36,256 nt of DNA from a virus, in the IMG/VR virus record IMGVR_UViG_3300046534_000500, positions 1 through 36,256 of that record; one strand, 5' to 3'. The position numbers were made by a program, and so were the translations under genes. Positions 1 through 32,554 of the stretch are shown here, piece after piece. Position 1 is the stretch's first letter. The number at the start of each line of letters is the position of its first letter. A model generated the notes under the pieces. It was not told where the DNA came from. It worked only from the letters and a program-made list of their open reading frames with translations, and made no database searches.

Positions 1-3000
1 TCCTTCAATGCAACAACTACCTTTTCATTTATATCCTTACTGGCTACTTTATCCTCAATGTTAGCTGCAGTAGTTCCCATGACAGAAGCAAAGTCGTTAT
101 CTTTCTCCATGAAAGTATCTTTAACATGCTCAGACATCATGTATCTGTAACCTATTACCTTCTTCACGTTATTCATTACTGGAATAGTGTATGTAGCATT
201 AGGACTAAGTTGCTTAGGAGAATTAAAAATATCCTCAATTAGAGCTTTCTTACTGGCCTTAGTATCTACAATATCATGTATAGCTGTAATGCCCGGTGTA
301 GGATCTCCTAACTGACTACGAGTAGTAAAGGTATTTGCTCCCTTAGCTACCTTACCTGTCTTAGATATAGAACCAGAAACAAATCTGTTTAATCCACCAT
401 GTCGATTAACAAACATGTATATAGGAATAGTATTGTTAGGATCTGTAGCATCTTTAGCTAATGGTTTAGCTTGAGGATCTCTGAAGAACCCCATTCTATT
501 CATTTCAGCTTCATCTGATAACTGACCGTACTCAACACCAATGTTAGGATTTAAGGTTTCCTTTGTGTAGCCTTTAATCATAGCGTTGTGCCCAACGAAT
601 ATACGCTTCTCAGAGTCTTTCTTAATATTTGCTGCCATACTAAGGGTAAAACTAACACCGTTCTTAAGGTTGTTATTTGCGCTCTCAGTAAGCATCACTT
701 GAGAGAACTCTTTTCTATAAGCTTTATCACTATATTTAATAGCATGAAGCGTAGCTAACTGATCAATAATCGGCTCAGCTTCTTTTGCCCATACCGGTGT
801 AGGCTTACCTTCTACCCATACTTCAGCTATCTGTCTAGCATTCATAAGAGTGTGTGTTTCTATAGCTGTTCCCTTAACCATAAAGTGGCCAAGATTCTCT
901 GCCATACGAGAGTAGAAGTTACCTAGATTACCAAACTTATATACGTCAGCTGTAAGACGAGCTATCTCAGCATCAAGCTTAGTATCAGATTCTACTAACT
1001 GTTGAATCTCGGCTAATGAGCGACCGTCAGTAAGTGATTGTAAATCTGTCTTAAGAGCTATCTTTGTAATAGCAACTTTCTGGACATCAGTAAGACCATC
1101 TTTATGAGCTTCGTACATTTTATTACTCAGCTCTGAAATCAATGTTTTAATATGATTACGCTGCTGATCAACTGTCATGTTAGCTATTCTATTTAGATCA
1201 TGGAATACACCATTATCAATAGTTCTACCCATTAATTCAGTAACTGTTGCTCCAAATAAACCTTCCTTACCTTCTGAGCTCTCATTGTATATCTGTCTTA
1301 AACCTTCAAAGATAAAGTCAGGCCTATTTTCTAATAGTGTTGCAGAGATAACACCAGTTAATCTAACAGGTAAAAGCTTAGAGTTAGCAACTATAGGTGA
1401 GTCAGCTATCTTAACCAAAGCCTGTCTAGTCTGAATAATCAAACCATTCATCTTCTCGGTAGTAAGATCAGCAACACTTTCAAGTTGAGCAAGAATAGGA
1501 TTCTTATGTCTCTGGTTTACGTTTGATACAGCTCTGAATAAGTTATCCATCTGATCTACAGCAGTAATATCTGCATTACCTTTAACAACAGTAAGTCTGT
1601 GCCAAGCATCCATAATAATTGCAAATAACTCTGCAACCATCTCAAGTAGATTAGTACTTAATTTAAAGTCAGCACCTACATTAGGAGTAAGCTTTCTAAG
1701 TGCTTCTCTGAATCTAGCATTAGTCATAGAGAATGCCATGAACTCATGCAGGTAATCAGCTTTACCATCAGCTTTACTTACTGGATCAAATACGTGATCC
1801 CACTTTCTTTGTGCAGCTAATCTCTCAATAGGAGTATCTGGTACATTAGGATTCATGAAAGCTTCAACAGTAATTCCTTCTCTAGCTTTCTGCCATAACC
1901 TCGCAATCCTAGCACTCATTGGAGAAGACTTGTCTACGCCTGCTCTTGATACGTTATGGACCATCTCATGAGAGTACACTTCCTGTGAGCTCATACGAGT
2001 ACCATTGGTAGTCATACCTGATACTGTAACGTTAGGGGTGGCAGTCTGATTGATGATGTACATGTCTACACCATTAGTCATACCTCTGGTTTCACCCTGG
2101 TTATCATTTTCCATGTGTAAAGTAACTGGATCAAGAACCTGAGAAATAACGTCAGTCATAAGAGTGCGTAAGTGCTCAGCATGTGCAAATGAATCTTTAA
2201 CTGAACCAATAGAACCAAGACTCTCAAATACTTGTAGAGCTTCCATTCTAGATACTCTGGTTACCACATCAGTTTGGAATGTATCTAAATCGATACCCTC
2301 TGAAGAAGAACCTTTGTAATCAATACCTTTTTCCATAACCTCTTTAACAATCGCTTTAGGAATGTTAGCAGGTAGACGAGTAGCACGTAATGTTTCTCCT
2401 CCATCAATATGATACTGAGATACAGTACTAAAATTTTTAATACGCTTACCTTTAGCAGTATCCACTTTAGTAGAAAGAGCCTGCATTTCTCTTGAGAACT
2501 TATCTAAATATCTTTTAGTATAAGTAACTTCACCAGTATCTTTGTCTTTTGCTACTTCAGCCTTTAGTTTAATTGCTTTAACTAGAGCTGGATCATACTT
2601 ATACAGTACATCTAATGAACGCTTCATAGCATCATATGCTGAGCTCATTATTGAGAACTCTTCTTGAACTTGTATAAACGCTTTGTTTATATTTTTTGCT
2701 TGCTTAAGCGCTTCGTCTTGACCGGTGATGATTGCGTCATACACATTCAATGCTGCGTACTTCTTAAGGTGTATCAACATAGTTGCTGCATCTATAGATT
2801 GCACGCCTAGCACTGCAGGAGAAGCTCCTGGAGATACCATCTCACGAACTCTACCTTGTGTAGTAAGATTCTTACTCTCAGCTCCATCTGGTTTAACTAA
2901 GTATCTCTGATCCACAGTGTATTCACTAGACTCAGTACGCTTAAGCTCATACTTACCTACAAATAAACCTTCTAGTATTTCACCAGTCTTCTGTGAGAAG

Positions 3001-6000
3001 AATGTCTTCATGATTGGCATTGCAGCTACGAACTCTTTGTTGATGTTATTAACATCTTCTTGAGTAATCTTGTAGTCATCAACCTGCAGTTTAGCAATTT
3101 CTTTATCATACATAAGTTTGTATGACTGGAACGCTACATCTAATGCATCATTAATCATCTTACCTTTTTTCTTAAAATCACCAAATGATTCATCAATAGC
3201 TTCTACAAGAGACTCACCATAAGTAGCTTCAATAAACTTAACCAGTTCAGCTTCATGCTTACCTGATAGTAGTTGTTCCATTGGCTCAGAATCCAATCTA
3301 ATTGAACCAGGAACAATGGTGTTCATTGCTATGCTTAATCTTTTTAAAGTTGTGCGATCATTCTTCTCAGAAGCTTTAGTGACATGGGCATAGAACTTAT
3401 CAAGGAATGCATAACCTACACTTTCTTTAATGCTTGGATCAGCAGCTCCGTATACAGTCTGGATCAAACCACCTTTAGAATCGTTACGTTCTATTTCTAG
3501 ACCAAAGATCTGTCTAGCAGCTCGAGCTTTAACTCGGTCATTACCCGTAAGATTTCTCAATAGATCTAAAAACTTACCATTCCATGATGAAGAGATAGCT
3601 GTATAACTGTCGTCGTTTAACTCTCTGTAGATACCAAATTGATCAGTAACACCGTCACTCAGTAAACCACCTCTAGCAAGCTTAGTAGTCTTATCAGCTT
3701 CACTTGTTCCAGCATCTAGGTTTAATGTGCCTATGATTACACCATTGGTAACACCATCTATTTCTCTAAATAGATCTGTTTCAAATAACTGACTACCTAA
3801 TGAATCGCGGTATCTACCTAAGTTCATCAAACCATCATATGAGTAAGCACCTTCTTTTATGTAAGGTAAGAATATCTCTGAATCACCTTTACCACTGTAT
3901 ACTGCATCTGCAGCAGCTTGGATACTAGGATCATTAACCATAGACATGATCTTTTCACCATAGCCGGGATGAGTAAACGTACCTAACCACGTACCCTTAT
4001 CAGTCTTAACTCCCATAGATTCACCAAATGCAGAGAAGAATTCATTCATCTGTTGAGTGTCATCTTTGTCTACAGTGTTAGTCCAACTAGCCTGTTGAAC
4101 GAAGTGGCGATGAGTCTTTGAACCCTGAGGGTTAAACGTATTACTCACAAGTAGAAGTCTGTTTACTACAGTCATCTCATGTTCAAAGTACATAGCATTA
4201 TCACCAAACTCTTCGTTGGCTTTCTCCATGTATTTAAGCTCACGTTCAATAGAATTATTCTTAGCAAGCAAAGCTTTACGTTGTGAGACATGAACCAGTT
4301 TATCTTCATGTCCCATGATCTTAAGTTGTACTTCTCTAGGCAGAGCTAGGAACTTATCCATCTTCTCTCTAGAGATATAATGAGCTCGTTCTTGATGTTT
4401 TTTAATGATAGGTACAGCTTCTGCTGGAGTAAGCATATCAGTCTTACGTTGGAACTTTGATACCTTACCTTTAGGCTTAGACTTTGGACCTGTTAAACCA
4501 AACTGAATACCAAATAGCTCTGTAAATATTCCTGCAGTATCTGCATTAGAATCTACGATCGCAGCTGGATTACCATCCATCTCTTCCTGTTCATCTACCA
4601 CTACAGTAGCCACTCTATAGAATGGGCGGTTAAGTATTACTTCTCTAGTTCCACCTGATTTAAGGTTTTCTACTCTAACATCTGGTGCACGCTCTCCATC
4701 TTGAATTTCCTTTTCACGAATAAGTCTATCACCTGGAGGAAACGCAGCAGTTATGTCTGGTGCAGGAATTAAGTTCTGCTTTATATAACCAGAGTCTAGC
4801 AACATAGATAACCCCATGGCGCCAAGAGATTGCTCTAAGTTAGATTTATTACTAACAGGTGCAGTATCCGCAGAGACTAAACCAAGAGATGCAGCAATAG
4901 CTGGTCCAATAGAATCTATAATACTATTCTCAGTTGCACCCGCAGTAGTGAGTAGATTTGGTAAATCCCCCATAATTGCATCATCTTTTCTACCTAGCAT
5001 AGAGTTAATATCTTCAAAGTTATTAAACATCGTTTTACCAGCTGAAGAAATAACCCAATTATATGCACCCATTGCAATAGCTGTTTTAACGTTCTCATCT
5101 ACAACGCCATCTACTGACATGTATTGTAAGAAGTCGTCCTTAGCATTCTGATGGCGATGCCTAAACAACTTATTAAATGAAGCAACAGTCTGGTCTCTAA
5201 AAGCAATCATAGTCTTAAGAGCAGTAGACTGTTTATCTGATAAGACTGGCTTACCTTCAGAGTCTTTATCTTGCTTGTCTGTATCAGCATACTTAAGAGC
5301 TAAACTAGGATCTTCTGCAAGTCTAGTCATTAGATCCGCTTCAACTGTTAGAGCTGCAGGACTAGCTTTCTCACCTTGAGGTGGAGCTTTAACTATAAAA
5401 CCAATATCACTAAGCGATACACCACCTTCACTCTTAGCAGTTAATAGAGTTTCTGTTAGATTGATAGGTTCTGGTTTAATGGGCACTTGTTCAATAGTGC
5501 TGAGGTTTTCAGATACTTCAAAACCTAGTTCACTAATCTCCTGTTCTAATGCATCTATTTTAGCAAGCATTCCTTGATACTCGGCTTCTTTATATAAATC
5601 ATGTATTGAGTCATTACCTGACAAGATTTCATTAACCAACTCAACAACATCACTCTCAGTAAGTGATGCTCCTGTATCTTCACTCAAAATTTCTACAAGA
5701 CCGTCAGTTGTGAGTCCACCTTCCACTTTAAATAACTTATGAAACTCTGTTGCGTTCTTGTCTGCAATATCTTCTATATCTACCCCATCAGCAATAAAGG
5801 ATTCTTTATTTAATCCGCCTGCTCTAGCGATAACCTGAGAAGTAGTTTTATTACTCTTTCTAAACTTCTCAGCTTCAGTAGTAAGTTCTTTAACTTCCTT
5901 TTCTAAGTTAGCAGTCTTTTCTTTTGTTTCTGTAGACTGTATAGGAACAGCTTCTGAGCTACCTTCAGCCACTTTCGGCTTCGCCTGCGTGGCTTCAGGT

Positions 6001-8261
6001 TTAGTAGTTTCTTCTTGTACATTAGTAGTCTCTTGTGTTGATACTTCTGGTTTAATGCCTATTCTAGCTTCTGCTTGTGCTACTGCAGCATTCAATGCAA
6101 TAGATTCACTACCAGTACGTGCAACCAATCCAGCAGAGAACTTAGCATTCCTTACTTTAGGAGTAATAGTGTTGTTCCACTTAGCAGCAGATTCTTGTAT
6201 AGCAGTAGTATCTCCAGCGAATGCTTTAGCAAACGTCTGAGCTTTGTCAGCATGACCTTCAGCAAACTTACGTAGCTTACTCAACTGAGCATTAGCAGTA
6301 GACTTATCGCCTAAATCCATAGCAGCATTAATACTGGATTGATAGTTACGAATACCAAGGAACTTATCCTTAGCAGAGCCATCAATAATATTACTGGATA
6401 CCTCATCCATAGATTTGATTGCTTGCTCTAATTCAATATGAGCATCTAGTTCACGTTCAACTTCTGGAGGTAGATCTTTAGCCACTTTCTTAAATGCAAT
6501 TACATCTTCTTCACTGATACTCTCAGGAGACAATCTGAAGCTTCCTACGAAGTCTTGTACATTACCTGACTCAATGCTTGCCTCTACCTTCTCAGTCGTA
6601 ACCTTGGACTGCTCACGTGTCTGTACAGCTTTGAATTGAGTTAAAGCTAATTGTTGTTGCTTCTGCAGAGTAGTATGAGCGGCTTGAAGCTTCTTAATCT
6701 CTTTTTCAGAATTAGACTCTTCCATCTTCTTAATAAGATTCTCAGATTCAGTCATACTCTCAACTATTAACTTACGAGCTTCACCGATATTAGCTGTATG
6801 CTCCTCGTCAGTAGTCCCCTCAACAGCATTACGCTGGAGTATACCGTCCATCTTTGTATTAATATTATGATCTGGATCATTGACTAGCTCTGCAACATTA
6901 CCTTCTTTGGCTTTGTCGATAGCATCTTTAACAGCCTGAGTCTGAGCAGTGAATTCTGCACTGGCAGCTTTAATTGATTCTTTGGTGGTTGCAACAACTG
7001 TGCCAGGTCCTGATAAAGCACCTGCAGATAATCCACCTGCTAGAGCTCCTGCACCTATGTTGGCGCCAACGCCACCTAATACATCAGTATCTTTATCAAC
7101 ATGACGCTTCTTAGCTACGTTAGATGAAATCTGTCCAGCAGCTCCTTGAATAGATTCTTCAAAAGCTTCTTTAACAGTTCTACCTGCTAAGTCTTTAGTA
7201 CCTGCAGCAAGAGCATTCTTAATACTTCCTTTGATTAGATCAGGAGAGAATACATTACCTTCTAACTTACCTGCTCCAGATAGCTTAGAGATACCTGCAC
7301 CGATCAATGCAGCAGGAATGAATGTCTCGCTTGCTACCATGTCTGCTAGAGAACGTTTGGCTTCAGTTGGACTCATTACCTTAATTAATTCATTGTACTG
7401 GTCAGAGCCTTTAACGAGCTCCTCATGGGACATCTTCAGAACATCAGCTTCTGCCTGTACAGCATTAGATCCACCTTCTTGGCCACCAGTGTATAAAACA
7501 GCACCAATTGTTCCTGCATTCTCAAGTTTAGCTTTACCTCGAGCAGTAGTTTTTAATACTTCTTTTGCGCTCTCAGTCATACCTTTGGTAGCTAATAATT
7601 TAGATGCTGAACCAGTAACACCGGCGCCTATTAACTGAGGTATCTGTTCTATAAGAAGATTACCTAATGCAACTGGATTATCTTTATAATCCATAACAGT
7701 TTCTGCAATAGAACCTGCTTCATCAACTACACTAGCCATATCAGGAGAGTAGCCTTCCTCTTGAACCAGTTTAGTTACCCGGGCAGCTTTACCCGCTGCA
7801 CGTTCTGCAGTCTTCTCTTCAACTTTTCTATTAGATTCTACTGAAACATCTGTAGCGTAATTTGCATCTACATCTTGTCTAGCAGAGTCAAATGAAGAGG
7901 ATAAACCAGCGATTTCATCTAATGATCTTGGGTTAGCTCCTGCTAATTCAGCAACTGCTTTAATAGGGTTGTTATTATATAAGGCTTCACTTATACCGTA
8001 TAAACCTTGGTTTATTCCTGTGATACCTTTAACGGCACTCGCAGCAGCATCTTGAGCAAACTCTCCACCTGTACGTGAACGCTCAGCCTTGAGTCTTGCT
8101 AACTTTTCTTTATGCTGTGCATTAAGATGGGATAATCCCTGCGCTCTTGCAGAGATCTTATTATTTTCTTCCTCTGATAAGTAAACAGGAGTTGCTGATA
8201 GGCTCTGCCTAAGCAGATTCCCCATAGCGCTGTTAGAAGAGGAATCTGTGTGCTTAGCCAT
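1..8261 (-). CDS. N4-like virion RNA polymerase, 3' part outside window
   Basis: This frame is open from ATG 8261 to the left edge (2,753 complete codons, no stop). It matches the giant DNA-dependent RNA polymerase that N4-type phages package and inject to transcribe early genes. Polymerase motifs in order: TVVNR followed by FNPQG (Arg1368, the T/DxxGR region), DGVTNG (Asp1502, motif A), RNDSK plus VYG (Arg1592, Lys1596, Tyr1604, motif B) and AYDAM (Asp1877, motif C). Spacings Arg to Asp (134) and Tyr to Asp (273) agree with N4 vRNAP as I remember it (135 and 273). About 1,350 residues precede the core: mostly helical, with a Gly/Ala-rich stretch near residue 400. Behind the core lies HEMVH (2098-2102) with a downstream HEFMAF (Glu2173), a zincin-like signature. 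The start has GGAAG five bases upstream and lies 12 bases after the preceding stop. The C-terminus is not visible. Confidence 0.93.
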   Translation of the reverse strand, partial: MAKHTDSSSNSAMGNLLRQSLSATPVYLSEEENNKISARAQGLSHLNAQHKEKLARLKAERSRTGGEFAQDAAASAVKGITGINQGLYGISEALYNNNPIKAVAELAGANPRSLDEIAGLSSSFDSARQDVDANYATDVSVESNRKVEEKTAERAAGKAARVTKLVQEEGYSPDMASVVDEAGSIAETVMDYKDNPVALGNLLIEQIPQLIGAGVTGSASKLLATKGMTESAKEVLKTTARGKAKLENAGTIGAVLYTGGQEGGSNAVQAEADVLKMSHEELVKGSDQYNELIKVMSPTEAKRSLADMVASETFIPAALIGAGISKLSGAGKLEGNVFSPDLIKGSIKNALAAGTKDLAGRTVKEAFEESIQGAAGQISSNVAKKRHVDKDTDVLGGVGANIGAGALAGGLSAGALSGPGTVVATTKESIKAASAEFTAQTQAVKDAIDKAKEGNVAELVNDPDHNINTKMDGILQRNAVEGTTDEEHTANIGEARKLIVESMTESENLIKKMEESNSEKEIKKLQAAHTTLQKQQQLALTQFKAVQTREQSKVTTEKVEASIESGNVQDFVGSFRLSPESISEEDVIAFKKVAKDLPPEVERELDAHIELEQAIKSMDEVSSNIIDGSAKDKFLGIRNYQSSINAAMDLGDKSTANAQLSKLRKFAEGHADKAQTFAKAFAGDTTAIQESAAKWNNTITPKVRNAKFSAGLVARTGSESIALNAAVAQAEARIGIKPEVSTQETTNVQEETTKPEATQAKPKVAEGSSEAVPIQSTETKEKTANLEKEVKELTTEAEKFRKSNKTTSQVIARAGGLNKESFIADGVDIEDIADKNATEFHKLFKVEGGLTTDGLVEILSEDTGASLTESDVVELVNEILSGNDSIHDLYKEAEYQGMLAKIDALEQEISELGFEVSENLSTIEQVPIKPEPINLTETLLTAKSEGGVSLSDIGFIVKAPPQGEKASPAALTVEADLMTRLAEDPSLALKYADTDKQDKDSEGKPVLSDKQSTALKTMIAFRDQTVASFNKLFRHRHQNAKDDFLQYMSVDGVVDENVKTAIAMGAYNWVISSAGKTMFNNFEDINSMLGRKDDAIMGDLPNLLTTAGATENSIIDSIGPAIAASLGLVSADTAPVSNKSNLEQSLGAMGLSMLLDSGYIKQNLIPAPDITAAFPPGDRLIREKEIQDGERAPDVRVENLKSGGTREVILNRPFYRVATVVVDEQEEMDGNPAAIVDSNADTAGIFTELFGIQFGLTGPKSKPKGKVSKFQRKTDMLTPAEAVPIIKKHQERAHYISREKMDKFLALPREVQLKIMGHEDKLVHVSQRKALLAKNNSIERELKYMEKANEEFGDNAMYFEHEMTVVNRLLLVSNTFNPQGSKTHRHFVQQASWTNTVDKDDTQQMNEFFSAFGESMGVKTDKGTWLGTFTHPGYGEKIMSMVNDPSIQAAADAVYSGKGDSEIFLPYIKEGAYSYDGLMNLGRYRDSLGSQLFETDLFREIDGVTNGVIIGTLNLDAGTSEADKTTKLARGGLLSDGVTDQFGIYRELNDDSYTAISSSWNGKFLDLLRNLTGNDRVKARAARQIFGLEIERNDSKGGLIQTVYGAADPSIKESVGYAFLDKFYAHVTKASEKNDRTTLKRLSIAMNTIVPGSIRLDSEPMEQLLSGKHEAELVKFIEATYGESLVEAIDESFGDFKKKGKMINDALDVAFQSYKLMYDKEIAKLQVDDYKITQEDVNNINKEFVAAMPIMKTFFSQKTGEILEGLFVGKYELKRTESSEYTVDQRYLVKPDGAESKNLTTQGRVREMVSPGASPAVLGVQSIDAATMLIHLKKYAALNVYDAIITGQDEALKQAKNINKAFIQVQEEFSIMSSAYDAMKRSLDVLYKYDPALVKAIKLKAEVAKDKDTGEVTYTKRYLDKFSREMQALSTKVDTAKGKRIKNFSTVSQYHIDGGETLRATRLPANIPKAIVKEVMEKGIDYKGSSSEGIDLDTFQTDVVTRVSRMEALQVFESLGSIGSVKDSFAHAEHLRTLMTDVISQVLDPVTLHMENDNQGETRGMTNGVDMYIINQTATPNVTVSGMTTNGTRMSSQEVYSHEMVHNVSRAGVDKSSPMSARIARLWQKAREGITVEAFMNPNVPDTPIERLAAQRKWDHVFDPVSKADGKADYLHEFMAFSMTNARFREALRKLTPNVGADFKLSTNLLEMVAELFAIIMDAWHRLTVVKGNADITAVDQMDNLFRAVSNVNQRHKNPILAQLESVADLTTEKMNGLIIQTRQALVKIADSPIVANSKLLPVRLTGVISATLLENRPDFIFEGLRQIYNESSEGKEGLFGATVTELMGRTIDNGVFHDLNRIANMTVDQQRNHIKTLISELSNKMYEAHKDGLTDVQKVAITKIALKTDLQSLTDGRSLAEIQQLVESDTKLDAEIARLTADVYKFGNLGNFYSRMAENLGHFMVKGTAIETHTLMNARQIAEVWVEGKPTPVWAKEAEPIIDQLATLHAIKYSDKAYRKEFSQVMLTESANNNLKNGVSFTLSMAANIKKDSEKRIFVGHNAMIKGYTKETLNPNIGVEYGQLSDEAEMNRMGFFRDPQAKPLAKDATDPNNTIPIYMFVNRHGGLNRFVSGSISKTGKVAKGANTFTTRSQLGDPTPGITAIHDIVDTKASKKALIEDIFNSPKQLSPNATYTIPVMNNVKKVIGYRYMMSEHVKDTFMEKDNDFASVMGTTAANIEDKVASKDINEKVVVALK

Positions 8262-8273
8262 ATACGCTTCCTA

Positions 8274-9692
8274 TTAGTAATCGAGTTGTTTTTGTTTCCA
8301 TTTTGCGTATTTTATACGTTTTGTATCAGCTTTACGACGTTTAATGCTATTAGCTGACTTTTTAGCAGTCTCATCTGCTACTTTAGCTAGTCTATTCATC
8401 TCAGCTTTACCACCTGGACCCTGCAGTTCCATTACTTTTTGTGCCAGTTTCATCTGGTAGTTAGTAACATCATCTGAATTATTTGAGGTAGGTATGGGTA
8501 CTACTTCCAATGCTACTTGCATAGCTTTGGAACCTTCTTTGTTAGCAGTCCATTCTTTTAGTGTTTGCTCAACGTCAGTCATATATACATCTGGATCGCC
8601 AAAAGCTTCAGCAGCAGTTTGAGAATGAATTCGCATGGCTGCACGCATCATTGATGTGCTGTATCCACCTTCTTGACGAAGAGTCTCCATTTTTGTTTTA
8701 AGTTCAGTTCCTCCAGTATCGCCATCATCTTTGATACTAAAGTTAGCCATCCAAGATTCATTTCCATGGGATTTCTCAAGCTCACCCATAAAGTTACCCC
8801 AAGATTCTAGTTCAGTATCTCCGTTAACGTCTACTTTACCACTGCTATTTATAACAGATAGCCTATCACTAGCTGATTGTAGCTCAGTTTGTTGTTGATC
8901 TATCTGCTCATAATCTAATTCTAGCTCAGATTCAATCCTATCAGTAGTTGGCTTAGAAAATTTAACATCCAATATACCTCTAAGCTGATCTGCGTAAGAA
9001 GCAATCTCAGCAGAGTCTGCAGTACCCTTTCTATCAGTTTTAAATTGTTCTATTTTATTCTGAACGTATGCTTCGTAATTACCATCACTAGATAGAAGTT
9101 CTAAAAGAGGTCTATTACTTTCCTGCACACCTTGATCAATATATTTAGCATCAACTTCGTTAGCCAATCTATCAGTTCTAACTTTGTCTTTATCAGTACG
9201 ATCAGTCTTAGCGTAAGCATCTTGCTCAATACTATCCAAAGCATTCGCTTGTGCACCACTGCCTGCTAGGGTTCCAGCTAGAGTAGTAGCTTCTTTGCTA
9301 TTGCCTTTTTCTAGCGCTAATTTAATAGAGTCCATAATAGGTTTATTAGCCCTACCTTGGAGCATCTCATCACGTGCAAACTTGGCATCACCCTCTGTAT
9401 CAATAGACTTATCACGTCCTCTTAGAGCAGAGTTAATAGCACTTTGATCTACGTTACCTAAGTCACCAAACTGATTACCTTCCAACGCAGCAGTTAAACC
9501 AGCACGATCTAGAGAACCAATTTCATTAGTTGCAGCTTCAGTCTGTTCAGTCTTCTGATTACTTTCCAGTTTACCACCTAAGTTAGCAAGCTGTTGTAAT
9601 CCTGATAACATAGTTTGGTTACCAGATTCAATAATCCTATTACCTCCTGTGAAGTCAGGATTATTAATATTTCTCCAAGTAATCTGAGCCAT
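8274..9692 (-). CDS. Internal virion protein, gp51-like position
   Basis: A 472-residue, mostly helical, polar protein. Its beginning (MAQITWRNINNPDF) resembles the N-terminus of podovirus internal virion proteins, and it lies directly before the vRNAP gene, where N4 has gp51. Gln, Asp and Lys/Glu heptad-like stretches around residues 230-290 suggest coiled coil, and the C-terminus is strongly basic (SIKRRKADTKRIKYAKWKQK), which could suit DNA or polymerase contact inside the capsid. No enzyme motif is visible. The start ATG shares a base with the upstream stop (TAATG at 9692), with GGGAG nine bases before it. A role as an ejected partner of the polymerase is inferred from position only. Confidence 0.75.
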   Translation of the reverse strand: MAQITWRNINNPDFTGGNRIIESGNQTMLSGLQQLANLGGKLESNQKTEQTEAATNEIGSLDRAGLTAALEGNQFGDLGNVDQSAINSALRGRDKSIDTEGDAKFARDEMLQGRANKPIMDSIKLALEKGNSKEATTLAGTLAGSGAQANALDSIEQDAYAKTDRTDKDKVRTDRLANEVDAKYIDQGVQESNRPLLELLSSDGNYEAYVQNKIEQFKTDRKGTADSAEIASYADQLRGILDVKFSKPTTDRIESELELDYEQIDQQQTELQSASDRLSVINSSGKVDVNGDTELESWGNFMGELEKSHGNESWMANFSIKDDGDTGGTELKTKMETLRQEGGYSTSMMRAAMRIHSQTAAEAFGDPDVYMTDVEQTLKEWTANKEGSKAMQVALEVVPIPTSNNSDDVTNYQMKLAQKVMELQGPGGKAEMNRLAKVADETAKKSANSIKRRKADTKRIKYAKWKQKQLDY

Positions 9693-10123
9693 TAGATTTT
9701 ACTCCCATCCACTGAGTTCTGTTTCATGTAATCAGAGACTGATTGATAATTACCAGGAGAAGCATCTAATCTGCGAGCCTGTCTATCACGTAATTCACTA
9801 TTAACTGTCTGAGCTTGGTTTGCTAGATTTCTATTAGTAGAATCTTTAGTAAAATCTAACTGCTTTTCACCAAGCTTAATGCCTTTCATACCTGTTAGTG
9901 CAGCCATTAAACCAGCGATACCTTGTCCGATAGAGCCTATACCTGATAAGTCCATTCCTGGCTTCTGAGCAGGCATACCAAAACCGGTACCACCGGGTTG
10001 GTCTCCTTGACCGATCTGTAGTAGTTGACTAAGTATGTCGTCAGGATTGGTACCTGCATATTGTGTGTCGGCAGTTGGTTTACCAATGTAATTATAATTT
10101 GAACCTGAAAGCTTTGTAGTCAT
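9692..10123 (-). CDS. Small internal virion protein, gp52-like
   Basis: A 143-residue protein with a disordered Gly/Pro-rich first half and a conserved-looking second half: a hydrophobic GIGSIGQGIAGLMAALTG segment (about 60-77) followed by KLGEKQLDF and NLANQAQTVNSELRDRQ. This last pattern recurs in small virion proteins of N4-like and related podoviruses (N4 gp52, about 15 kDa), often described as head-tail or ejected components. GAGGC lies seven bases before the ATG. It is translationally coupled to the next gene by a TAATG overlap. The glycine-rich hydrophobic segment may be membrane-active, but that is a guess. Confidence 0.75.
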   Translation of the reverse strand: MTTKLSGSNYNYIGKPTADTQYAGTNPDDILSQLLQIGQGDQPGGTGFGMPAQKPGMDLSGIGSIGQGIAGLMAALTGMKGIKLGEKQLDFTKDSTNRNLANQAQTVNSELRDRQARRLDASPGNYQSVSDYMKQNSVDGSKI

Positions 10124-14227: not shown

Positions 14228-15712
14228 TTACCATTCAGCTACTAACTTCATAAGCGCGATACGCTCAGGACGTAATACCATGAAACCGTAGTACCACTTG
14301 ATGCTCATGAAACCTAACTCACCATATGGATCTGTACGGTCAGCAGTCTCAACACCAGGCTTCTTGTGGGTGATCTTGAACTTCACAGTCTTACCATCAG
14401 TTTGGAAACCGATGTTAACAAATGAGCCAGAACCGACTACAACAGCAGGGAATACGTCGTAGTTACCACCAGTTTCACGGTAACCATCGTTAGTACCAAC
14501 AGCAGCACCAGCACCTGCCCAATGAAGCATTTCAGGAACAACTATGATCTTGAATGAACCAATTGCACCAATCTCGCCTTCAGCTAGAGTACCTGCTGAG
14601 CCGTACTGATGAACAGGAACAAATGCTTGATTGTTGAAATGATCAGTCATACGCTTGAACATTGGGACTAACTCAGAACCACAGTGAATGTAGCGAGTAG
14701 AGCCAACAGTCTTAGTATCAACCATACGAGAACCAGTGATGATAGTAGTCTCTTTAGGGCAACGGTTGTTGTCCAAATCGATATCTAACTTCATCAAGTC
14801 ATCATAAGTAAGAATAGATGCAGTAACACCGTTCTCACCAGTAATTTCAATTGTTGCAGTAGCTTCGCCACCAAAACGTACAACACCTGCAGCATTCAAG
14901 ATATCAATCTGAAGTTGATCTTCATTGATTTCTTCTGCACCCATAATCATCTCACGAGAGATGTGACTCATTAGCTGGTCATCAGTATCAAAGTCCAAAG
15001 ACTCTTGAGTGTATTCTGAGAAGAAACCAAACTTGTTTAATGAACCGGTAAGTTCAACACGTTTGAAGCCGACTCGGTTAACACGACCACCAAATTCAGT
15101 GATAGCAGGGAACTTACCAGCGATTGTACCAATGTCCTTACTAGAACCGTAAAGGTTACCAGACTCAGGTACAGCATCACCAACAGTATCACCAGTGAAA
15201 CGGTAGCCTTTAACATAAGCAACACCGTCAGCAGAGTTAACACCATCTACATACTTAAGTGCTTCAGTAGCACCTGTCAATGTAAGACCTAGACCACCAG
15301 ATACAACAGCACGCACCATAAATGAATTTACAAGAGTTTGCGCAGCAACCAATGCAGCAGCTGCAGTTGCACCTTCACCAACAAACGTAATATTACGTCT
15401 ATTAGAATAATCAGGTTGTGTGCCAACAGTAGTTTCAGGATGTTGTACAGTGATTGTGATCTTCTGGTTCACAGTAAGACCTGCAGCATCAATACCTTGA
15501 TCGTTGATGTTAGCATCGTCTAGCATAGGCAAGTAGTGGTATCGCTTAATAGCTTTACCCATATGCTTAGGCATGTTTTCTACAGTACTCATCTGACCGA
15601 AGAAGCGTTTTTTCTTTGCTTCAATCAGACTAGCTTTATTCCATTTGTCGATATTAAACTGGGTTCCAATGCTGGAATCCTGTCCGTTACCGTATGCTTG
15701 TTCGTTAGACAT
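14228..15712 (-). CDS. Major capsid protein (N4 gp56-like) with an apparent insertion
   Basis: This 494-residue protein builds the icosahedral shell (HK97 fold expected). Stretches such as FFGQMSTVENMPKHMGKAIK, YHYLPMLDDANINDQGID, GGRVNRVGFKRVEL, FGFFSEYTQESLDFD and VPEMLHWAGAGAAVGTN are strongly N4 gp56-like. N4 gp56 is about 400 residues; the extra length falls between DQGIDAAG (about residue 78) and NLYGSSKDIG (from 186), a Thr/Val/Ala-rich beta-type segment. In N4-like capsids those two motifs are, as I remember, nearly adjacent. The gene is followed by a strong terminator, fitting high expression. A short AT-rich leader with GTGAGA precedes the ATG. Confidence 0.95.
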   Translation of the reverse strand: MSNEQAYGNGQDSSIGTQFNIDKWNKASLIEAKKKRFFGQMSTVENMPKHMGKAIKRYHYLPMLDDANINDQGIDAAGLTVNQKITITVQHPETTVGTQPDYSNRRNITFVGEGATAAAALVAAQTLVNSFMVRAVVSGGLGLTLTGATEALKYVDGVNSADGVAYVKGYRFTGDTVGDAVPESGNLYGSSKDIGTIAGKFPAITEFGGRVNRVGFKRVELTGSLNKFGFFSEYTQESLDFDTDDQLMSHISREMIMGAEEINEDQLQIDILNAAGVVRFGGEATATIEITGENGVTASILTYDDLMKLDIDLDNNRCPKETTIITGSRMVDTKTVGSTRYIHCGSELVPMFKRMTDHFNNQAFVPVHQYGSAGTLAEGEIGAIGSFKIIVVPEMLHWAGAGAAVGTNDGYRETGGNYDVFPAVVVGSGSFVNIGFQTDGKTVKFKITHKKPGVETADRTDPYGELGFMSIKWYYGFMVLRPERIALMKLVAEW

Positions 15713-19511: not shown

Positions 19512-19550
19512 CTCCGTTGCTGAATGCGACATCAATTACTAGGAATAATT

Positions 19551-19751
19551 ATGATTAGATATAGAGTAAATCCTAAAACAGGGGATATAAATAGAATGGA
19601 GATGCTACTAGAGCCATTCGATACTGATGAATACTACTTCAAGTGCACGTACACAGAGGCTAAGTGTAGCTTACTTAATCTCATAAGCGATGAAGTAAAT
19701 AAATTGAAAGCCCTACTAAATAAAGTAAAACAAACGGAGTACCCCTCATAA
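19551..19751 (+). CDS. Small protein of unknown function
   Basis: A 66-residue protein, first gene of the plus-strand island. I chose ATG 19551 because AGGA lies six bases upstream; an in-frame start at 19524 would have no ribosome site. It begins MIRYRVNPKTGDINRMEM, has two cysteines in EYYFKCTYTEAKCSLLNL, and ends with a Lys/Leu helix. No known family is recognised. Its stop overlaps the dUTPase start (TAATG), so the two are translated together. Confidence 0.6.
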   Translation: MIRYRVNPKTGDINRMEMLLEPFDTDEYYFKCTYTEAKCSLLNLISDEVNKLKALLNKVKQTEYPS

Positions 19752-20161
19752 TGAAGTTTATTAAATTAAGTCACGAAGCTACACTACCAACTAGAGGAAC
19801 TAGAGGATCTGCAGGTTATGATCTTTACACTCCTAATGAAATTACACTACACCCAAACCAGCAATTACTAGTACCAACCGATATAGCTTGGACAAACTGT
19901 CCAGAATATTTAGTAGGGATCATTAAGGATAGAAGCTCCATGGCTCATAAGCATAACATGGTAACTATGGCTGGAGTTATAGACTCAGACTATGACAAGA
20001 AGAATATAGGAGTAATCCTAAAAAATACTTCTGATGAAATTAAAGTGTTCAAAAAAAATGAGCGTATAGCTCAGATGATAATTACTCAGAGATTCTTAGT
20101 ACAGAACGATATAGTTATCGACGATGAGCGTACTGGTGGATATGGAAGTACTGGCGCGTGA
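19751..20161 (+). CDS. dut: Deoxyuridine triphosphatase (dUTPase)
   Basis: A complete 136-residue trimeric-type dUTPase, which converts dUTP to dUMP and pyrophosphate, keeping uracil out of DNA and feeding dTMP synthesis. All five motifs are present: AGYDLY (21-26), KDRSSMA (59-65), AGVIDSDY (74-81) with the catalytic Asp78 and Tyr81, RIAQMI (105-110) and RTGGYGSTG (127-135). Motif 3 has DKKN where RGEI-like residues are usual, and motif 5 has Tyr in place of the common Phe that stacks on uracil. The gene is coupled to both neighbours by stop-start overlaps. A nucleotide-metabolism enzyme inside a late structural region is unusual in location. Confidence 0.95.
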   Translation: MKFIKLSHEATLPTRGTRGSAGYDLYTPNEITLHPNQQLLVPTDIAWTNCPEYLVGIIKDRSSMAHKHNMVTMAGVIDSDYDKKNIGVILKNTSDEIKVFKKNERIAQMIITQRFLVQNDIVIDDERTGGYGSTGA

Positions 20162-20583
20162 ATAATTATCATAGAGTATACGGTTACGGTTCTAGTAGTA
20201 TGAAAAATATTAATACTACTGTAGAGCAATTACAGGAACTATGTTTGAGAGCTATGGAGATAGCTTGTAAGCGTAAGTTATATTGTCCTGACTTTGGTAT
20301 ATCTGAAGGTAAACGTACCACTGCAAGGCAGGAGTATCTGTTTAAAGAGGGTGCATCCAAGTGTGATGGAATAATTAATAGATCTAAGCATCAAGATGGT
20401 TTAGCTATCGATTATTTTGCATATTATTTAGGAAAAGCAGATTATGACCCTGGAAGGTTAGCACTTATATTCACATGCTTTCAAGAAGCAGCTCTAGATA
20501 TGAATATTCAAATAAAGTGGGGTGGCAATTTTAACTCAATTGCCGATGCCCCACATATTGAATTAGTATCTGGGATAAATTGA
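20158..20583 (+). CDS. M15-family peptidase, probable endolysin
   Basis: A peptidoglycan peptidase of the VanY/L-alanyl-D-glutamate (M15) type, expected to cut the cell-wall peptide at lysis. Counting from the internal ATG at 20200 (127 residues), the zinc ligands are His64 and Asp71 in SKHQDGLAID and His119 in DAPHIEL, with Asp116 in the position of the catalytic Asp; WGGNF precedes it as usual. Two starts are possible: GTG 20158, which overlaps the dUTPase stop and has GGAAG nine bases upstream, or ATG 20200, which begins close to the family core but lacks a clear ribosome site. No signal peptide is seen, so a holin would be needed. The last 21 bases overlap the converging gene. Confidence 0.9.
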   Translation: MNNYHRVYGYGSSSMKNINTTVEQLQELCLRAMEIACKRKLYCPDFGISEGKRTTARQEYLFKEGASKCDGIINRSKHQDGLAIDYFAYYLGKADYDPGRLALIFTCFQEAALDMNIQIKWGGNFNSIADAPHIELVSGIN

Positions 20584-28945: not shown

Positions 28946-29325
28946 ATCTTAATCCTCTTAGTTAAAGTGTTTCCATATGTGAATAAGGCTATTACAGGAC
29001 ACACAAAAATAACAATTAAAGATAAAGCTCCTAAAGCGTAATGTGAGCTCTCTCTATGTATATACTTATTTTCAAATATCCATGCTGCTTTGCAATGTCC
29101 CGGTCCATCAATAGGCAAAAAAGTAAAATCAATAATCTTCTCTAATAGCTTCCAGTATGGATTTGGTTTGTTACCTGCAAAACAGCCTGTACGACCTGAC
29201 ACAGTTGTTCTAGGATTACCTCCACATAATGCATTACCTAATCGATCAATCTGTATTAGGAAGGGCAGAAGCCCCTCCCATACAAACAATGCTAGGAACG
29301 CTTCCTTAACATTTCTATACCACAT
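28924..29325 (-). CDS. Conserved phage membrane-associated protein, unknown function
   Basis: A 133-residue protein with the pattern [19 protein letters not shown] (about 29-47) followed by an [19 protein letters not shown] segment and one membrane span near the C-terminus ([19 protein letters not shown]). The pattern 'LNALLGG.ped.T.SsR.g ... W..l...ID.lf....HC' occurs in many short phage proteins encoded among tail or lysis genes; their function is not known to me. It overlaps the fibre gene stop and the holin-like gene start, so it belongs to the same translation unit. Confidence 0.65.
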
Positions 29326-32300
29326 TTTCTAATACCTCTAGTCTAGTTGTTAACTCTTGGATTGCTTTAACTAATACAGGAATTAACTTCCCATAATCTG
29401 CTTCAATTATGTCAATACCTAAGCCAGTGGCTGTTGCATCGTATTCTTGGTATGAGTTAAGACTGTCAGCACTATACGCATCCTGCGTAGCTTTAAATTC
29501 TTGTGCTATAAAACCTATCTGTTTAGTTCCTTGCTTAGCAGGAGCCTTCCCATCAGTAAAATGTTCATGTCGGTAGTCCCAAGTAAATTCTACTGGATTT
29601 AGTTCATTTACATAAGCCAATCCAATAGGGCACGAACGCCCTACATTCTTATCTCTACCATCTGATAAAGAGCTTATAGATGTGTCGTTACATCTTAAAT
29701 TAGTGACGTTTGTACTACCTAATGTAAATTGTCCTGCTGCTGTAGCTGATGCAAAATAACCTATAGATTCACTAGGTTGAAAGTTAGCAGTAGCATTTGT
29801 ACCTATAGCTGTACAGCCTGCACCTGTTGCAGATGAGTTGCTACCTATGGATATAGAGTTAATACCTAATGAGGTATTACCTGCTCTGTACCCAATACTC
29901 ACACTGCTATTACCACAACTTATTTCTCCTGCCCTTACTCCAATAGAAACAGTACCTGTCCCTTGTGTAGTACGCCCTGCGTTATTTCCTATAGCAACAC
30001 TACTATTTCCTTGATTAAGGTTACCTGCAGAGACTCCTATAGATATACTTTCTGTCCCTTGCGTATTACGCCCAGCAGAATCACCAATAGCTACACTTAA
30101 TGTACCTTGATTTAAGTATCCAGCTGCTCTACCTATACCTACAGAAGACACACCTTGATTAGTTCTACCTGCTGACTCCCCTATTGCAACACTATCATCT
30201 GCTTGATTGGAGTAACCTGCCAAGAATCCAATAGCTACACTACTATCACCTTGCGAAGTACGACCTGCTTGATAACCAAGAGCTACACTACCTGCCCCTT
30301 GTGTTGTTTGTCCTGAGTTATTTCCTATAGCTAGTGAGTTAGCCCCTTGACTAGTATCTCCTGCTAATGGCCCTATTGCCACAGAATTATTTGCGCTCTG
30401 AAATGCTACATCAATACCTCCCATAACTGTGGGCATATAATTAACAGTTCTTTCCACTCTAGTCCAACTACTAGACGATGTGTATGTTCCACCTATATAA
30501 ACTCTAGTCTCACTAAAACCAGTACTGTCATTATACTGAACAGAAATATCATTAACTAATGGGACTCCATATGGGGCAATAGCTGCAATAGCTGTATTTG
30601 TAGACCATGAAGTATAAGGAGAGCTGTAAAAACCTCTACTTCCTCTAATACCTGCAGAACCACTTGCCCCTGTTGGACCAGTAGAACCCGTGGTCCCTGT
30701 AGGACCTCTTGACCCTGTAGGACCAGTTGGCCCAGCACTACCAGTATTACCTGTAGTACCTGTAAGACCGGTAGCTCCATCGTCGCCATCAACACCATTT
30801 GTACCATTTGTACCTGCAAAACCGGTTGGTCCTCTTAGTCCTGTAGTACCTGTTGGGCCTGTTGCACCAGCTGCACCTGTGTTACCAATACTACCTTGCG
30901 CACCTTGGTTACCAGTAGCTCCAGTTAGACCTTGATCACCTACAACACCTATGTCACCTTGATCACCCTTAGATCCTTGAATACCAGTTACACCTCGTAA
31001 ACCTTGAGGACCGGGGGCGCCATTAACGCCGTCAGCACCTTGGAAACCTGTGTCCCCTTGAGGACCTTCTAAACCAGTATTGCCTACTAAGCCTTGCGGC
31101 CCTGTTGGGCCAGTGCTACCTATAGTGCCCTGAAATCCTTGTGGACCTCTAATACCTGTTGGCCCAATATCACCTTGTTCGCCTACAAGACCTGTGGGGC
31201 CTATATTACCTTGGTCACCTTGTATCCCTTGATTACCGTCTGAACCTTTTACACCCTGAGGTCCTTGAGCTCCAGTAGGTCCAGTTAATCCAGTTGCACC
31301 TTGTGGTCCAGTTGCACCTATTAACCCTGTAGCGCCTATTGGTCCATTAGGTCCTTGAGATCCTGTAATACCAGTAGCTCCTTGTGGGCCCGTAATACCA
31401 GCTGGGCCTTGAGGACCTTCAGGGCCAACACCAAATGGAATTGCTGTTGACCAGTCACCAGATGTATTTGAAAGTTTAACAAATAGTGAGCCAGTACCTA
31501 TTGCGTTTACGTGATCTGTTGCAAGATACGAGTAGCCATCTAGTTCTGCATTATGAGTAGCTCGTCCAGAGAATAAACCTACATTATCCACAGCAAACGA
31601 TGTACCTGCATTACCTTGAGAGCCAACTACGCCTTGTACACCCTGTGGACCAGTTGCTCCCGTAGATCCAGTAACACCAATTGAACCTTGAGAACCAGTA
31701 TCTCCTGTAAGACCTTGAATACCTTGAGGACCAGTAGCACCAGTTGTTCCAGTAACTCCAATTCCTCCTGTATCGCCTTGAGGACCCTGAATTCCAGTAG
31801 CTCCAACAGGTCCTTGTGGACCGACTGCTCCTGTATTACCTACAGTACCCTGTGGACCTGTGGGACCAACAACACCTTGATCACCCTGTGGGCCTTGAAT
31901 ACCGGTAACTCCTATGTTTCCTTGTGGTCCTTGATCTCCGGTTAAACCAGTAACGCCTTGATCGCCCTGTATACCTTGGATTCCTTGAATACCTTGTAGT
32001 CCCCTATCACCCGGCTCACCTTGATCGCCTTGTATACCCTGTATACCTTGGTCACCAGTTTCTCCAATAGGACCTGTATTTCCCTGAACACCTTGAAATC
32101 CGCGTTCACCTTGTATACCAATTACTCCTTGTATACCCGTCGGTCCTGTTGGTCCTGTTGGGCCTTGTATACCTGCTGGTCCTAGTGATCCTTGTCCAGA
32201 GAATATTGACCACTCTGTAGCGGTAACTCCGCTAATTACTCCATCAAACCAGACATAATCACCTTTTGGATAGTCTGTACCGGTATAGTAAAATCTTTGT

Positions 32301-32554
32301 GCATCTAGTCCAGTAACAGGGAGAGTTGTACCTGTGCCAGCGTAAGACTCGTTAAATGCAGCTAAATCAGAAGCAGCTTGAAGTTGTGTATCGAGTGCTG
32401 CCTGTGCAGATATAGCAGCAGCATCCCTAGCAGCTTCAGCTTCTGTTTTAAATTCTTCAGTTGCTGCAGTATCTGGAGAGCTTATTCCCCGCATACCTTT
32501 ACTGATAACTATGTACTTACTTCTATTGGACGTAACATTAATAGTGGTTGGCAT
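29315..32554 (-). CDS. Collagen-like tail fibre with head repeats and S74 chaperone
   Basis: A 1,079-residue fibre. Residues 1-120 hold an Ala-rich coiled segment and a small beta unit ending in [19 protein letters not shown]; 121-317 and 376-641 are Gly-X-Y collagen-like repeats broken by a 58-residue beta insert; 642-720 is a beta hinge; 724-915 is about 12 tandem 16-residue units of the S(V/I)(A/S)IG..AG..(T/N)QG type, like trimeric-autotransporter head repeats; 961-1079 is a Peptidase_S74 intramolecular chaperone with the Ser964-Lys969 dyad in SDGRDKN, GFIAQEF and a C-terminal coiled coil. The chaperone should trimerise the fibre and then cut itself off before Ser964. Coupled by TAATG to the gene before it. 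Host recognition is the likely role. Confidence 0.93.
29810..30385 (-). repeat. Twelve tandem 48-base coding repeats (head-like)
   Basis: Each unit encodes 16 residues with a conserved SVAIG-type start and AG...QG end; starts fall at residues 724, 740, 756, 772, 788, 804, 820, 836, 852, 868, 884 and 900 of the fibre. Spacing is exact, so units can be gained or lost by recombination without a frameshift. Similar units form left-handed beta-roll heads in YadA-like adhesins. Confidence 0.85.
30632..32194 (-). repeat. Collagen-like coding repeats
   Basis: Two blocks of nine-base repeats encode Gly-X-Y triplets (fibre residues 121-317 and 376-641), with GIQG, GPQG, GPTG and GATG dominating. They are interrupted at 31430-31603 by a non-repetitive beta insert. 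The blocks are prone to slippage, so length may vary between isolates. Confidence 0.9.

What the first reader, a model, noticed from the sequence alone, without database searches (positions are those of the whole stretch)
1738..1970. HExxH metallopeptidase signature inside the virion RNA polymerase
Behind the polymerase core the giant protein carries HEMVH (residues 2098-2102) in YSHEMVHNVSRA and, 71 residues later, HEFMAFSMTNARF (Glu2173). HExxH plus a downstream Glu in an 'EF.A....N..F' context is the gluzincin-like arrangement found in some large multi-domain phage proteins. A protease fused to an injected RNA polymerase could process the polymerase, cleave host factors, or help passage through the envelope. 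I do not know this as a described activity of N4 vRNAP.
Basis: partly seen in the sequence, partly recalled or inferred. Interest (0 to 1): 0.72.

Follow-up and report, generated by a model that had tools for sequence, protein, structure and literature searches.

The report
Relocated metallopeptidase in phage virion polymerase
A giant RNA polymerase that an N4-like phage packs in its virion carries an intact zinc-protease-type domain, but in the second of two tandem slots, where phage N4 itself keeps only a decayed copy and uses the first slot instead; the protease prediction is known for N4, this relocated version appears not to be described.

Summary
HEMVH lies at residues 2098-2102 and Glu2173 71 residues further, behind the RNAP core of a Schitoviridae vRNAP. 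His2098, Glu2099, His2102, Glu2173 and Phe2174 are invariant in the 42 non-redundant vRNAPs of the window's type. AlphaFold2 gives a confident minimal zincin with the motif on one helix and Glu2173 on a later one. The nearest solved fold is N4 vRNAP residues 2373-2592 (Z 11.2), then anthrax lethal factor and PPEP peptidases at Z 5-7.

A zincin in N4 vRNAP is not new: Iyer 2017 predicted it; Evseev 2021 and the 2025 N4 structure repeat it. But N4's motif (HELVH, about residue 2228, domain C1) is a different, paralogous domain (A). The window lacks A. Its active zincin (B) corresponds to N4 residues 2391-2661, inside C2, where the catalytic residues have decayed. Of 134 non-redundant vRNAPs, 86 have active A and decayed B, 42 only active B, 6 both, none neither; Alteromonas phage AD45-P4 looks like one exception. 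Proteolysis, zinc binding and substrate are untested.

The parts
3..8261 (-). virion RNA polymerase (N4 gp50-like), 2753 residues, C-terminus cut by the window edge
   Evidence: ORF; PHROG 2206 virion RNA polymerase, E=0, residues 43-1912; tblastn to 391 phage records, largely N4-like
2559..5099 (-). RNA polymerase core, about residues 1055-1901
   Evidence: tblastn start of matches and end of the RNAP-core profile match at residue 1901
2256..2558 (-). short linker (residues 1902-2002) where N4-type vRNAPs carry zincin domain A; the domain is absent here
   Evidence: gap from RNAP core to domain B is 102 residues here, against a median of 385 in A-type proteins; alignment
1362..2255 (-). zincin domain B, residues 2003-2300
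   Evidence: alignment A1; hhalign to the decayed N4-type B domain E=1.6e-31 and to domain A E=2.2e-13
1722..2189 (-). predicted zincin core: helix 2025-2042, strands 2046-2053, 2059-2062, 2066-2072, motif helix 2092-2109, glutamate helix 2170-2180
   Evidence: AlphaFold2 model, mean pLDDT 82.9, pTM 0.77
1956..1970 (-). HEMVH, residues 2098-2102: two predicted zinc ligands and the predicted general base Glu2099
   Evidence: invariant in 42 of 42
1743..1745 (-). Glu2173, predicted third zinc ligand
   Evidence: invariant in 42 of 42
8274..9692 (-). probable gp51-like ejection protein, 472 residues
   Evidence: position next to vRNAP as in N4; PHROG 6467, unknown function, E=2e-9; role inferred from synteny
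9692..10123 (-). probable gp52-like ejection protein, 143 residues
   Evidence: position as in N4; PHROG 2646, unknown function, E=1e-21; role inferred from synteny

Best explanation
The motif is the active site of a zincin-fold domain (domain B) fused behind the RNA polymerase of an ejected vRNAP. His2098, His2102 and Glu2173 would hold a Zn ion and Glu2099 would activate water. Shown here: the motif, its invariance, the predicted zincin fold, homology to a decayed domain at N4 residues 2391-2661, and paralogy with N4's own intact zincin (domain A, C1). Inferred: early vRNAPs carried the tandem A-B; the N4 and LUZ7 lines kept A catalytic and let B decay into a scaffold; most of the window's clade deleted A and kept B catalytic. 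Inferred, less sure: the domain is an endopeptidase that works after ejection, in the host cytoplasm, most likely on a host or phage protein in trans rather than on its own chain. I put about 0.9 on the zincin assignment, 0.75 on peptidase activity and 0.4 on a host target.
For: Invariant H, E, H and E across divergent relatives. AF2 topology helix, three strands, HExxH helix, Glu helix. VIA-align Z 11.2 to N4 2373-2592, then lethal factor 584-776 (Z 7.0), PPEP-3 (Z 6.4) and PPEP-1 (Z 5.4). Domains A and B match in register at HExxH and at E-F-x-A and split into two clades on one well-supported branch (SH-aLRT 97), with the A domains of the window's near relatives falling among the other A domains. 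In decayed B domains the ligands are replaced (H1 to F/L/I/M, H2 mostly E/V, Glu to R/V/T) while fold residues such as Phe2174 stay (81 of 86). A scan with RNAP-core patterns that ignore the zincin found 65 loci with the B fold: 47 A-active, 16 B-active, 2 both, none neither. Literature: vRNAP is ejected into the cell and the N4 protein is packaged unprocessed (PMC5512222).
Against: No zinc, activity or substrate data exist. Z of 5-7 to known peptidases is within the range of a common arrangement; only the N4 match is strong. LF and PPEP carry a catalytic Tyr seven residues before the Glu (from memory and PDB titles); the window has Gly2166 there. No Pfam or NCBIfam family matches. Independent switches are few (2-3 for B), so the trade-off between A and B is not statistically established. 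Alteromonas phage AD45-P4 has EEVVH at site B and no HExxH at all.
Confidence: 0.75

Rival explanations
1. Self-processing: the zincin cuts its own vRNAP chain, in the capsid or after ejection, for example to free the polymerase from the inhibitory C-terminal domain.
For: Iyer et al. propose autoproteolysis for polyvalent proteins and cite processing of phage P1 DdrB. The N4 C-terminal domain inhibits the polymerase.
Against: N4 vRNAP is packaged unprocessed, and recombinant full-length N4 gp50 showed no degradation. These are A-type data; nothing is known for the window's type.
Confidence: 0.25
2. A metal site without peptidase function: structural zinc, or an iron/2-oxoglutarate HExxH hydroxylase as the N4 preprint mentions.
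For: The N4 authors note that HExxH also occurs in radical-SAM-fused alphaKG-HExxH proteins. No proteolysis has been found reported for any vRNAP.
Against: Glu2099, the catalytic base in zincins and not a metal ligand, is as invariant as the ligands. Nearest folds outside N4 are peptidases, though the hydroxylase fold was not tested directly.
Confidence: 0.15
3. Envelope passage: the domain cleaves peptidoglycan cross-links or periplasmic proteins to open the way for the ejectosome.
For: N4 ejection proteins lack a known peptidoglycan hydrolase and the authors expect one in trans. The A-type profile also matches ejection proteins of other phages, 9sfn_G E=6e-15 and 8vb2_A E=2e-4.
Against: vRNAP is thought to be the last protein ejected and to pass through a finished channel; the domain sits behind a polymerase that must work in the cytoplasm.
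Confidence: 0.12
4. Chance motif with no function.
For: A random protein of this size holds an HExxH in 5.7% of shuffles.
Against: Invariance of all catalytic residues and the fold.
Confidence: 0.01

Closest known systems
Zincin-like metallopeptidase of phage N4 vRNAP (Iyer et al. 2017, PMC5512222; domain C1 in PMC12633501)
   Same: Same kind of protein, zincin fold with HExxH plus a downstream Glu in an E-F-x-A context, directly behind the polymerase.
   Different: It is domain A; the window lacks A and has the intact site in the paralogous downstream domain B, which in N4 has lost H, E, H and the Glu.
N4 vRNAP residues 2391-2661 (start of C2)
   Same: Orthologous domain: hhalign of the two B families E=1.6e-31, fold Z 11.2.
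   Different: Catalytic residues decayed in N4; the preprint reports no structural homology for C2 as a whole and does not mention a zincin there.
Tandem-zincin vRNAPs: Vibrio phage PG11, Vibrio phage phi 1, Vibrio phage 1.238.A, contig L175
   Same: Carry the same intact domain B.
   Different: Keep an intact domain A as well.
Anthrax lethal factor catalytic domain and PPEP peptidases (M34-type zincins)
   Same: Same general fold, HExxH and a downstream Glu (Z 5-7).
   Different: About 8-13% identity, 71 residues instead of roughly 40-45 (from memory) to the Glu, no Tyr seven residues before the Glu.
crAss-like phage RNAP-associated protein fused to a zincin
   Same: Polymerase-linked phage giant protein with a zincin; weak BFVD match E=5e-3.
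   Different: Different phage group; relation beyond the fold not tested.

Membership tests
N4-like virion RNA polymerase (PHROG 2206) | Whole-protein profile match, place after the ejection-protein genes | tested here: met
   E=0, residues 43-1912; neighbours as in N4
Zincin-like metallopeptidase domains of polyvalent proteins (Iyer 2017) | HEXXH on the first conserved C-terminal helix | tested here: met
   Motif at 2098-2102 on helix 2092-2109
Zincin-like metallopeptidase domains of polyvalent proteins (Iyer 2017) | Glutamate on the second C-terminal helix | tested here: met
   Glu2173 on helix 2170-2180, 42 of 42
Zincin-like metallopeptidase domains of polyvalent proteins (Iyer 2017) | Three-stranded sheet preceded by a helix | tested here: met
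   AF2 secondary structure
Zincin-like metallopeptidase domains of polyvalent proteins (Iyer 2017) | Zinc binding and metal-dependent proteolysis | not testable with these tools
   Needs protein in hand
Pfam PF18818 MPTase-PolyVal | Score above the Pfam cut-off | tested here: not met
   No match for the window domain or any B-type member; one A-type member at E=0.09
M34 peptidases (lethal factor, PPEP) | Fold similarity | tested here: inconclusive
   Z 7.0 and 6.4-5.4, within the range of common arrangements
M34 peptidases (lethal factor, PPEP) | Catalytic Tyr seven residues before the zinc-binding Glu (position from memory and PDB titles) | tested here: not met
   Residue 2166 is Gly

The most novel reading that the evidence does not exclude
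Schitovirus vRNAPs descend from a tandem-zincin ancestor and need one working metallopeptidase, but not a particular one: whichever copy stays catalytic, the other is deleted (A) or decays into a scaffold (B). N4's supposedly new C2 fold then begins with a dead protease.
Probability: 0.5. Interest if true: 0.6.

Novelty: new variant of a known kind. Interest (0 to 1): 0.5.

Why it matters
The zincin of N4 vRNAP has been a prediction without a function since 2017. Showing that nearly every vRNAP sampled keeps one intact zincin, in one of two places, suggests the activity is under selection and tells experimenters which residues to remove in which phage. It also offers an explanation for the first part of N4's C2, for which no relative had been recognised.

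Tried and rejected
Pfam, NCBIfam and PHROGs gave no zincin family for this domain; a weak Gpi1 hit (E=0.012) falls on helices and was dismissed. The single-protein scan of viral contigs found nothing; profile queries were needed. A 16-sequence RNAP-core alignment was too diverse to scan with; five sequences worked. I first read the N4 motif as the orthologue of the window's; the alignment and profile comparisons showed it is the paralogue. The paired test for an A/B trade-off had too few independent events. Coordinates of the models were not available, so ligand distances were not measured. Two of the locus scans used patterns that contain the motif, so counts of B-active proteins are inflated; the count from the RNAP-core scan is the fair one. 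Papers on the 8vb2 ejection protein were not in the library.

Full report
The window is a 36,256-base viral record with the structural genes of an N4-like podovirus: terminase, portal, major head protein, tail and ejection-protein genes, then the vRNAP, nearly all on the minus strand. The vRNAP runs from 8261 off the window at 3, 2753 residues. HEMVH is at 2098-2102 and Glu2173 follows 71 residues after His2102. It is the only HExxH in the protein.

The motif is conserved where it should be. Thirteen B-type domains at 19-34% identity to the window share twelve invariant columns, among them the two His, both Glu and Phe2174. In a larger non-redundant set the same five positions are identical in all 42 proteins of the window's type and in all 6 that carry two HExxH motifs behind the polymerase.

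The fold is a zincin. AlphaFold2 on residues 1988-2313, with 44 sequences, gave mean pLDDT 82.9 and pTM 0.77. The order of elements is helix, three strands, the HExxH helix, and later the helix with Glu2173, which is the core that Iyer et al. describe. Foldseek's only hit below E=0.001 among solved structures is N4 vRNAP. VIA-align places the model on N4 residues 2373-2592 at Z 11.2, 179 residues, rmsd 4.3, and then on the catalytic domain of anthrax lethal factor and on PPEP peptidases at Z 5-7. The latter are the nearest peptidases but the scores do not prove kinship.

What is already known. Iyer et al. [quoted passage not shown] Evseev et al. 2021 extended this to Pectobacterium phages. The 2025 cryo-EM preprint assigns the HExxH to C1 (2124-2375) and reports no structural homology for C2 (2376-3500).

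What is different here. N4's motif is HELVH at about residue 2228 (corrected for 12 residues before the start codon), about 1,270 residues from the C-terminus. The window's type has it about 1,020-1,090 from the C-terminus. Profiles show why. The window's domain B aligns over its full length with the N4-type region at 2391-2661 (hhalign E=1.6e-31; hmmsearch on the PDB sequence E=4e-11), where FQMVT stands for HEMVH and T for Glu2173. N4's intact domain A aligns with domain B only at the zincin core, with HExxH and E-F-x-A in register (E=2.2e-13). In the window the polymerase core ends at 1901 and domain B starts at 2003, so there is no room for domain A; in A-type proteins the gap has a median of 385 residues.

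Survey. Of 134 non-redundant vRNAPs, 86 have an intact A and a decayed B, 42 have only an intact B, 6 have both and none has neither. In two of the six (L211, L216) the upstream motif has no domain-A profile match, so only four are clear A-B tandems. Because two scans used the motif in their patterns, the fairer count is from a scan with polymerase-core patterns: 65 loci with the B fold (not de-duplicated), 47 A-active, 16 B-active, 2 both, none neither; elsewhere two loci (L106, L107, both with an intact A) had no detectable B. The closest annotated phage by coverage, Vibrio phage PG11, has both. In decayed B domains the first His is mostly F, L, I or M, the second mostly E or V, and the Glu mostly R, V or T, but fold residues persist. 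A tree of zincin cores puts all 92 A domains on one side and all 48 B domains on the other (SH-aLRT 97, few columns), including A domains from PG11, L175 and L122; PG11 and L122 are near relatives of the window by polymerase. L122 is of type A and groups with the window's clade, so the B site probably decayed there separately. The simplest history is a tandem A-B ancestor. An AF2 model of a tandem protein (L175, pLDDT 76.7, pTM 0.52) shows two such cores and aligns to N4 2124-2592.

Limits. The trade-off rests on few independent switches: two to three for B, eight for A, so the rule that one copy must survive is descriptive. Alteromonas phage AD45-P4 shows EEVVH at site B, no detectable A domain and no HExxH, in a gene its depositors flag as possibly frameshifted. 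It is a probable exception.

How it most likely works. vRNAP is ejected into the host with the DNA, and N4's is packaged whole; recombinant full-length N4 vRNAP shows no degradation. So I favour an endopeptidase that acts in the infected cell in trans on a host or phage protein, over cutting of its own chain. This step is inference. The copy that lost its site is kept when it is B, perhaps because B is built into the large C-terminal domain, and is removed when it is A.

Verdict: an established kind of domain in an established kind of protein, in a position that seems not to have been described, together with a decayed counterpart hidden in N4.

Noticed in passing
L115 (AD45-P4), and L023 ORF starting at 3167: Alteromonas phage AD45-P4 vRNAP has EEVVH at site B and no HExxH anywhere; the gene is flagged as a potential frameshift. 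Only vRNAP seen with no intact zincin.
   Followed up: partly
L039 ORF residue 1216; L181 ORF about residue 1037; L167 ORF residue 1527: Some vRNAPs carry an additional HExxH zincin on the N-terminal side of the polymerase, with domain-A profile matches at E 1e-7 to 1e-12.
   Followed up: no
L211 ORF 3, residues about 2257-2690: A divergent HEYAH region and a nucleotidyltransferase-like stretch sit between the polymerase and domain B.
   Followed up: no
window 14228-15712: Major head protein is 494 residues against about 333 matched profile positions, so it seems to hold an insertion of roughly 150 residues.
   Followed up: no
window 29315-32554: 1079-residue tail fibre with repeated matches to collagen-like minor tail proteins.
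   Followed up: no
window 19524-20583: Three consecutive plus-strand ORFs between portal and tail genes, opposite to the rest of the module; possibly lysis genes.
   Followed up: no
PDB chains 9sfn_G 420-560 and 8vb2_A 382-510: Ejection or internal virion proteins of other phages match the domain-A profile, so the zincin is shared beyond vRNAPs.
   Followed up: partly
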